Source of the DNA: Terriglobia bacterium | Lineage (GTDB): Bacteria; Acidobacteriota; UBA6911 | Length of the DNA: 64,000 nt | Direction of reading: 5' to 3' | NCBI GenBank assembly: GCA_020072565.1 | Contig: JAIQGI010000012.1 | Span: 1 to 64,000 of the forward strand | Shown: positions 10,082 to 40,485 of the stretch, one piece after another | Numbering within the stretch: the stretch's first letter is position 1 | Layout of the letters: each line of letters begins with the position of its first letter | Position numbers and translations under genes: made by a program | The notes under the pieces: generated by a model | Database searches by the model: none | Told to the model about the DNA's origin: nothing | What the model saw: the letters and a program-made list of their open reading frames with translations, nothing else

Positions 10082-10213
10082 GATCCGGTCCCTCCTCCTT
10101 GTGTCGCATATATTGTTTCGTGAGGGTCTGATTTCTTTCTTTTTTTTGTGAGTCAGCAATTGTCACGGATCGACCATGCTTGTGATTGCACGCCATGAGG
10201 ACTGTCCGGAGAC

Positions 10214-10405
10214 CTATTTTCGGAACAGCCCCGCATGCGCCGGGGCGCACCCTAGGACGCATGAAAAGCGCATGTCATCCGGTTGGTGAACCTCGGGATC
10301 GGGATCGCAATCGCAATCGAGGTCGCTATCGGCTTTTGTCGGCTGAGATTTCCGATTGCGACGGCGATTGCGATCCCGATACCGATTTGTCTATTTTCGA
10401 AGCAG
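10214..10405 (+). repeat. Hexanucleotide hairpin repeat, copy A
   Basis: The element contains a conserved 31-bp box (10237-10267) and a long imperfect hairpin: left arm 10294-10332, loop 10333-10351, right arm 10352-10384. The arms are built from 6-bp units of the type GATCGG/AATCGC. CTATTTTCGGAACAG (10214-10228) and CTATTTTCGAAGCAG (10391-10405) flank it as direct repeats with 13 of 15 bases equal. A second copy lies in opposite orientation at 40093-40290; their boxes match at 28 of 31 bases and the loops are alike, while the arms differ in sequence and unit number yet remain self-complementary. It occupies most of the gap between the pilin operon and the SRPBCC gene. Confidence 0.8.
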
Positions 10406-39969: not shown

Positions 39970-40485
39970 ATTGCGTTAAACCGGGTGAAACCGCCAATCA
40001 ATCGGTAGGTTTTATATATGCAGAGTCCCGTGTGGGCAAGGGGGAAATTTGCACCGTAATGGAAGCGGGACAGGGCAGGTGCTCTTTTTGTGCTGCCGTT
40101 CCGAAAACAGGTAGTCGCGATCGGTATCGGCATCGGCGTCGCCATCGCAGTCGCAATCGCCATCGGAACCTTTAGCCGGCCAAAGCCGATAGCGATTGCG
40201 ACTGCGATACCGATACCGCTCCCGAGCCATGACTGAAGAGGCACGGCGATACATTGCCATTTTCACGCGTCCTAGTGTGCGCCCAGGCGCCTGTCGGACT
40301 TTCCAACCATACGGTTGAGATTTATTGGATGCGGCCACGCTGTTCCGTTCGCAGCCGATCCTGCCGCTCTGCAATTATTGCAGTGTCGGCCCGCGGATAA
40401 ACAACATACGATTAAGTGATTGACTTGCTGGGGGTAACACGACATTAGCCTCAACCAATGGATGCAGGTATTGCAGTGGCCGCTG
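39970..40485. other. Intergenic region carrying hairpin repeat copy B
   Basis: The 516 bp between acpS and the response-regulator gene hold repeat copy B at 40093-40290 and the upstream region of acpS. No gene was recognised. Two short frames that cross the repeat (Arg/Tyr-rich on one strand, Asp-rich in another frame) are products of its 6-bp periodicity. Confidence 0.6.
40093..40290 (-). repeat. Hexanucleotide hairpin repeat, copy B
   Basis: In the opposite orientation to copy A it has the same plan: conserved 31-bp box at 40260-40290, hairpin arms 40186-40218 and 40122-40166 around a 19-base loop at 40167-40185, and a TTTTCGGAAC end near 40099-40107. Its arms match each other almost perfectly apart from a 12-bp (two-unit) insertion in one arm. 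Their sequence differs from copy A, but the pairing is kept. Confidence 0.8.

What the first reader, a model, noticed from the sequence alone, without database searches (positions are those of the whole stretch)
40093..40290. Hairpin repeat B: same box and loop, arms changed in step with each other
Against copy A the box agrees at 28 of 31 bases and the loop is alike, but the stem units differ in sequence and number. Pairing within each copy is kept (nearly perfect here apart from a two-unit insertion). Change in step on both arms points to selection on, or a copying mechanism acting on, the hairpin itself, such as a DNA or RNA structural element with its own mobility.
Basis: partly seen in the sequence, partly recalled or inferred. 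Interest (0 to 1): 0.72.

Follow-up and report, generated by a model that had tools for sequence, protein, structure and literature searches.

The report
Hairpin-carrying miniature IS110-type mobile element
The hairpin is one of about 35 scattered copies of a small "passenger" jumping element in a soil-type bacterium, whose two ends match those of a recently active IS110-family insertion sequence; its two arms pair because both are made of the same self-matching six-letter unit, not because evolution kept them in step.

Summary
A 40-nt-arm hairpin lies at 40120-40226, and its box matches copy A at exactly 28/31 bases. It is one of about 35 dispersed copies in a 7.46-Mb Acidobacteriota MAG. The inference does not hold: across 24-27 copies, a copy's own arms pair no better than arms taken from different copies (0.747 vs 0.740, p=0.17; 80.3 vs 79.7% of cells paired). 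The test would have seen matching in only 10-20% of copies. Arms pair because both are arrays of the near-palindromic hexamer ATCGSN. Copy B is an exception: its arms match best of 27 copies, and two other copies have inverted hairpins. These are the two signatures of replication template switching. The 'box' is not part of the hairpin. It is the left end of a modular element (median ~165 bp) with fixed ends and interchangeable cargo. The same ends bound a recently active IS110-family insertion sequence (9 identical left ends, 8 near-identical right ends) that inserts at TCAACGCAG^AGG inside another palindromic repeat. Two miniature-element loci sit at that exact break point. No REP-associated (Y1) transposase is linked. 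Best reading: B is an old, chimeric, non-autonomous IS110-type element carrying a hairpin. Trans-mobilisation is inferred, not shown.

The parts
40096..40301 (-). Copy B: whole miniature element (left end at 40301, right end at 40096)
   Evidence: ends located by the head/tail motifs
40096..40109 (-). Right end (tail) TGTTTTCGGAACGG; family consensus TATTTTCGGAACAG, which agrees with the IS110-type right end at 13/14
40120..40166 (.). Hairpin arm 1: eight ATCGSN-type units
40167..40185 (.). Loop AACCTTTAGCCGGCCAAAG, conserved across type-1 copies
40186..40226 (.). Hairpin arm 2
40227..40265 (-). Subterminal segment of the type-2 cargo family: B is a chimaera of a type-2 left end and a type-1 hairpin
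   Evidence: compare L008/L011/L020; coordinates
40260..40301 (-). 'Box' = left end (head) of the element with a subterminal hairpin TGCGCC/GGCGCA
   Evidence: 28/31 with copy A; head profile hit; pairing 94.3% across heads
10226..10405 (+). Copy A: same element, opposite strand (head 10226-10267, tail 10392-10405, loop 10333-10351)
10203..10225 (+). Tail-like remnant (TGTCCGGAGACCTATTTTCGGAA) directly before copy A: probable remnant of an earlier tandem unit
   Evidence: a near-identical sequence ends the element at C27

Best explanation
B is an old, degenerate, chimeric copy of a non-autonomous mobile element of IS110 type. The element consists of about 40 bp of left end (the 'box', a small subterminal hairpin), an interchangeable cargo (here a long hairpin of ATCGSN hexamers) and about 14 bp of right end. 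Both ends match those of a multi-copy IS110-family insertion sequence in the same genome. The most likely life cycle: the IS110 recombinase, guided by a bridge RNA supplied in trans, recognises the joined ends (...TTTTCGGAACAG|TCTC...), excises the unit as a circle and inserts it at a CAG core, without target duplication, into a palindromic repeat (TCAACGCAG^AGG) or next to an existing unit. The hairpin arms pair because each is an array of one near-self-complementary hexamer. Arms diverge by slippage and point mutation, and are occasionally homogenised (B) or the hairpin inverted (two copies) by replication template switching. Shown: copy number, ends, modular cargo, IS ends and family, shared insertion point, absence of family-wide covariation. 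Inferred: mobilisation in trans, bridge-RNA guidance, template switching as the cause.
For: About 35 dispersed copies. Across 52 heads and 26 tails conservation stops abruptly after the final CAG. The box occurs with several unrelated cargos and in tandem. Nine contig ends carry one identical 126-nt left end. Eight carry the matching right end, whose reading frame hits IS110 transposases (37 aa, E 5e-4; 64 aa, E 2e-11). A head profile trained on miniature elements only finds the IS left end from position 1 (E 1.7e-6); tails agree at 13/14. Miniature elements at C16:37549 and the C7 pair interrupt TCAACGCAG^AGG exactly where the IS does, and intact sites are plentiful. No family covariation: (power 0.88 if 10% of copies matched).
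Against: The interior of the IS is absent from the assembly, so its two ends are never seen on one contig and only 64 aa of the transposase are known. NCBIfam's IS110 model matches that fragment only weakly (E 0.03) and Pfam does not match it. Most miniature elements are flanked on the left by TTTTCGRAR-CAG rather than TCAACG-CAG, which is not fully explained. No empty orthologous site was found: the only same-genus genome is ~77% identical. One of five covariation measures was mildly elevated (7 vs 4.7 pairs with double change, 6/500 shuffles).
Confidence: 0.74

Rival explanations
1. A REP/BIME-type element mobilised by a REP-associated tyrosine (Y1/HuH) transposase through a single-stranded intermediate.
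For: Dispersed intergenic palindrome with a subterminal hairpin, insertion without target duplication and tail-to-target similarity all resemble IS200/IS605-type elements; 8 Y1_Tnp genes exist in the genome.
Against: None of the 8 Y1_Tnp loci carries the heads or tails within 1.5 kb. The ends are shared with an IS110-family element instead. No GTAG or CGTC tag at the foot of a short palindrome as in the REP classes of PMC3733652.
Confidence: 0.1
2. A structured RNA or DNA element kept by selection on base pairing, for example an mRNA stabiliser or terminator.
For: Strong hairpin; the small head hairpin keeps pairing in 94% of cells with some covariation (3/500).
Against: The long arms show no covariation across 24-27 copies despite adequate power. 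Unit number in the two arms is not significantly correlated (rho 0.27, p 0.19). Copies with 4 against 8 units persist.
Confidence: 0.08
3. The ends are a recurrent insertion target rather than element ends: the IS110 simply inserted into an older hairpin repeat that already contained head and tail.
For: IS110 elements are known to target repeats (PMC11208160).
Against: Head and tail are in the repeat part of the IS copies; the flanks outside differ between copies and together reconstitute a different repeat, TCAACGCAGAGG...CCTCTGCGTTGA. Miniature elements interrupt that same repeat at the same base.
Confidence: 0.08

Closest known systems
IS110/IS492-family insertion sequences (IS621 type, bridge-RNA guided; PMC11208160)
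   Same: Long left non-coding end, very short right end after the stop codon, no terminal inverted repeats, insertion at a short shared core without target duplication, target inside a palindromic repeat, IS110 transposase C-terminus.
   Different: The hairpin elements carry no recombinase; about 40 + 14 bp of ends enclose an unrelated hairpin cargo. Such miniature forms were not found in the held literature.
MITEs / palindrome-associated non-autonomous elements
   Same: Short, dispersed, non-coding, ends shared with an autonomous IS in the same genome.
   Different: No terminal inverted repeats and no target duplication (except one palindromic unit at C42:20677-20733); cargo is swapped between copies.
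REPs/BIMEs with RAYT (PMC2817692, PMC3733652)
   Same: Intergenic palindromes in many copies, tandem or mosaic arrangement.
   Different: About 165 bp not 20-40 bp; no linked Y1 transposase; IS110-type ends.
BOX elements of Streptococcus pneumoniae (from memory, a lead only)
   Same: Modular repeats with a variable number of internal units.
   Different: No sequence relation was tested.
Quasipalindrome template switching (PMC8604942)
   Same: Arm homogenisation and spacer inversion, both seen here.
   Different: Here it would act on a few copies of a mobile repeat; described there in yeast genes.

Membership tests
IS110-type mobile element (non-autonomous member) | Ends shared with an element encoding an IS110/DEDD recombinase | tested here: met
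   IS110 transposase C-terminus 7 nt before the shared right end; head profile hits the IS left end, E 1.7e-6. The recombinase N-terminal DEDD domain was not recovered.
IS110-type mobile element (non-autonomous member) | Site-specific insertion at a short core, no target duplication | tested here: met
   TCAACGCAG^AGG break point for the IS and two miniature-element loci; flanking trinucleotides do not match between the two sides as a duplication would.
IS110-type mobile element (non-autonomous member) | Bridge RNA in the left end of the autonomous element | tested here: inconclusive
   A stem with an internal loop holding UCUCUGUG and AACGCAG, complementary to the target strands, is present, but in the reverse order of IS621; only 132 nt of the end are available. 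No Rfam hit.
REP / RAYT system | REP copies flank or neighbour a Y1 (RAYT) transposase gene | tested here: not met
   8 Y1_Tnp loci, none with heads or tails within 1.5 kb.
REP / RAYT system | GTAG or CGTC tag at the foot of a 20-40 bp palindrome | tested here: not met
   Element is ~165 bp; ends are CAG-core IS ends.
MITE | Terminal inverted repeats | tested here: not met
   Left and right ends are unrelated in about 25 miniature elements; a single palindromic unit at C42 is the exception.
Structured RNA under selection | Covariation above background in the long stem | tested here: not met
   (one of five measures mildly elevated).
Known Rfam family | Match at gathering score | tested here: not met
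   0 matches in the window.

The most novel reading that the evidence does not exclude
A genome-wide system of cargo-swapping miniature cassettes moved in trans by an RNA-guided IS110 recombinase: any hairpin (or other short DNA) that acquires ~40 bp of left end and ~14 bp of right end becomes mobile, inserting at bridge-RNA-chosen palindromic repeats and stacking in tandem at donor-like junctions.
Probability: 0.4. Interest if true: 0.72.

Novelty: new variant of a known kind. Interest (0 to 1): 0.5.

Why it matters
IS110 elements are the founding case of bridge-RNA-guided recombination. Natural non-autonomous derivatives that keep only ~55 bp of ends would show which end sequences suffice in vivo and that the guide can act in trans on unrelated cargo. 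The case is also a caution: two copies of a low-complexity hairpin can look perfectly co-evolved while many copies show no covariation at all.

Tried and rejected
RAYT / IS200-IS605 as mobiliser: no ends near any Y1_Tnp gene. The 23S rRNA intervening-sequence (four-helix bundle) protein as partner: 8 genes, no convincing hairpin copies nearby. Integron attC: considered, no R/L box motifs seen, not scored. Terminal peptide ...GDQVRLRFELESITENTTFVHRKPYGAQ at the left end as a transposase: no homologue in 396 genomes or plasmids, now read as a chance frame in the non-coding left end. IS110 genes found by PF01548 in four genomes do not carry these ends. Complete IS sought on about 40 short contigs and many contig ends: not present. 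Viral contigs: loop pattern absent. Wider genome collection: one exact head match, an Acidobacteria MAG. The window's own flanks in the same-genus genome are too divergent for an empty-site test.

Full report
WHAT IS THERE. At 40120-40226 of the window lie two arms built of the hexamer ATCGSN around a 19-nt loop. The single strand folds far better than shuffles (z -4.7). Copy A is on the opposite strand at 10226-10405. Judged from the ORF list, both copies lie between genes. No Rfam family matches.

HOW MANY. The window is the first 64 kb of contig C12 of a 7.46-Mb, 135-contig Acidobacteriota MAG. A search of that genome with copy B gives 63 matches, many of them the same hairpin on both strands, at about 35-40 places. 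Most are found again with the family consensus. A head-only search finds still more places whose cargo is not this hairpin. In the same family, genomes G001, G002 and G005 carry the box and, in G001 and G002, hexamer hairpins with other loops. One exact head match in the named collection is an Acidobacteria MAG.

DO THE ARMS CHANGE IN STEP? For 25 copies, local alignment of arm 1 with the reverse complement of the same copy's arm 2 scores 0.682; with arms dealt among copies it scores 0.671 (p 0.18). Unit numbers of the two arms are not significantly correlated. In register with the loop, 27 copies give own-arm identity 0.747 against 0.740 (p 0.17). A planted signal in 10% of copies would be found with power 0.88, in 20% with 0.98. 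On an ungapped alignment of 24 copies, 80.3% of cells pair against 79.7% in shuffles (121/500) and the covariation score is 0.072 against 0.063 (55/500). One measure, pairs with double changes, is mildly raised (7 against 4.7; 6/500). So the arms pair in every copy because every arm is an array of the same near-self-complementary unit. Copy B is an outlier: its arms match at 22/23, best of 27, and they share the unit GTCGCA. Two copies (L016, L026) have the loop, and in L016 clearly the arms too, inverted relative to the box. Arm homogenisation and spacer inversion are the two products of template switching between inverted repeats (PMC8604942).

THE ELEMENT. The box is not part of the hairpin. 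Aligning 52 heads and 26 tails shows a unit with a constant left end (CAG|TCTCTCATGCGCCGGGGCGCACCCTGTGACGCATGAAAA) and right end (TATTTTCGGAACAG|), after which conservation drops to zero at once. The median length is about 165 bp. The tail motif occurs 11 times at one mismatch or better in 1.54 Mb and never in a shuffled control. Between the ends lie different cargos: the ATCGSN hairpin (type 1), a GATCGTG hairpin (type 2), a GGGCGCGGGCGGCCCGACCGCGCCC hairpin and others. Units stand in tandem at C7:300419/300602, C3:16048/16224 and C4:209873/210019. Copy B joins a type-2 left end (40227-40265) to a type-1 hairpin, so it is a chimaera. The head holds a small hairpin TGCGCC/GGCGCA, paired in 94.3% of cells with some covariation (3/500); a larger alternative fold of the head shows none.

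THE AUTONOMOUS RELATIVE. Nine contig ends carry an identical 126-nt sequence that starts with the same head, each preceded by different DNA ending in TCAACG. Contig ends at C1, C7, C25, C50, C70, C76, C99 and C101 carry the matching right end: a reading frame ending ...DLGADYFERLHRDRIRRYHVKRLEHLGYKVKLTEEAA*, 7 nt, then AATTTTCGGAACAG. The peptide matches IS110-family transposases (E 5e-4 with 37 aa; E 2e-11 with 64 aa); curated models are weak or silent on so short a piece. A head profile trained without these IS copies finds the IS left end from its first base (E 1.7e-6). The right flanks begin AGGxCGCxGAG and the left flanks end TCAACGCAG. Together they restore a palindromic repeat, TCAACGCAGAGG...CCTCTGCGTTGA; 82 sites with one mismatch or less occur in 1.54 Mb. 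Miniature elements at C16:37549 and the C7 pair interrupt that repeat at the same base. Since miniature elements physically link head and tail, and both IS ends lie in the two halves of one target, the two IS ends most likely belong to one IS. No contig shows this directly.

HOW IT PROBABLY WORKS. IS110 recombinases excise their element as a circle and insert it at a short core, guided by a bridge RNA that reads target and donor; off-target insertions near donor-like sites occur (PMC11208160). The minimal donor is short, so ~14 bp of right end plus the start of the left end could suffice in trans. About half of the miniature elements follow TTTTCGRAR-CAG, which is the donor's own right end, in keeping with stacking beside earlier units or donor-like insertion. 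A stem in the IS left end holds UCUCUGUG and AACGCAG, complementary to the target, as a target loop should, but in the reverse order of IS621; this is only a candidate. Mobilisation in trans is inferred.

WHAT IT IS NOT. None of 8 Y1_Tnp genes has the ends, and the REP tags of PMC3733652 are absent. The 23S intervening-sequence protein genes are unlinked.

NOVELTY. IS110 elements and MITE-like elements are both known. A miniature, hairpin-carrying, cargo-swapping IS110-type element was not found in the held papers, which do not cover all journals. I call it a new variant of a known kind.

Noticed in passing
L238/L241/L235 (G000:C38:1-138, C6:1-136, C103:9064-9193): IS110-type left end with a possible bridge-RNA target loop (AGGUC stem; UCUCUGUG and AACGCAG complementary to the target), guide order reversed against IS621.
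   Followed up: partly
G000 genome-wide, e.g. C7:93423-93494: A separate palindromic repeat TCAACGCAGAGGxCGCxGAG...CTCTGCGTTGA, about 80 sites per 1.5 Mb, is the insertion target.
   Followed up: partly
L263 (G000:C42:20677-20733): A 57-bp near-perfect palindromic unit made of two inverted IS heads back to back.
   Followed up: no
L093, L099, L101, L108 (G001, G002): Relatives carry the same ends and ATCGSN arms but a different, longer loop, suggesting repeated loop replacement.
   Followed up: no
L059 (C8:201700), L108, L092, L132: Other cargos or neighbours are also unit-repeat hairpins (GTGGACCTGGAC; CTTTGAGATTCTTCGAG), so unit-repeat hairpins seem a favoured cargo class.
   Followed up: no
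Contig ends of G000 (C116-C135): Many contigs break at shared ends of other multi-copy repeats, some recognisable by eye as IS3- and IS66-like; the genome is rich in recently active insertion sequences.
   Followed up: no
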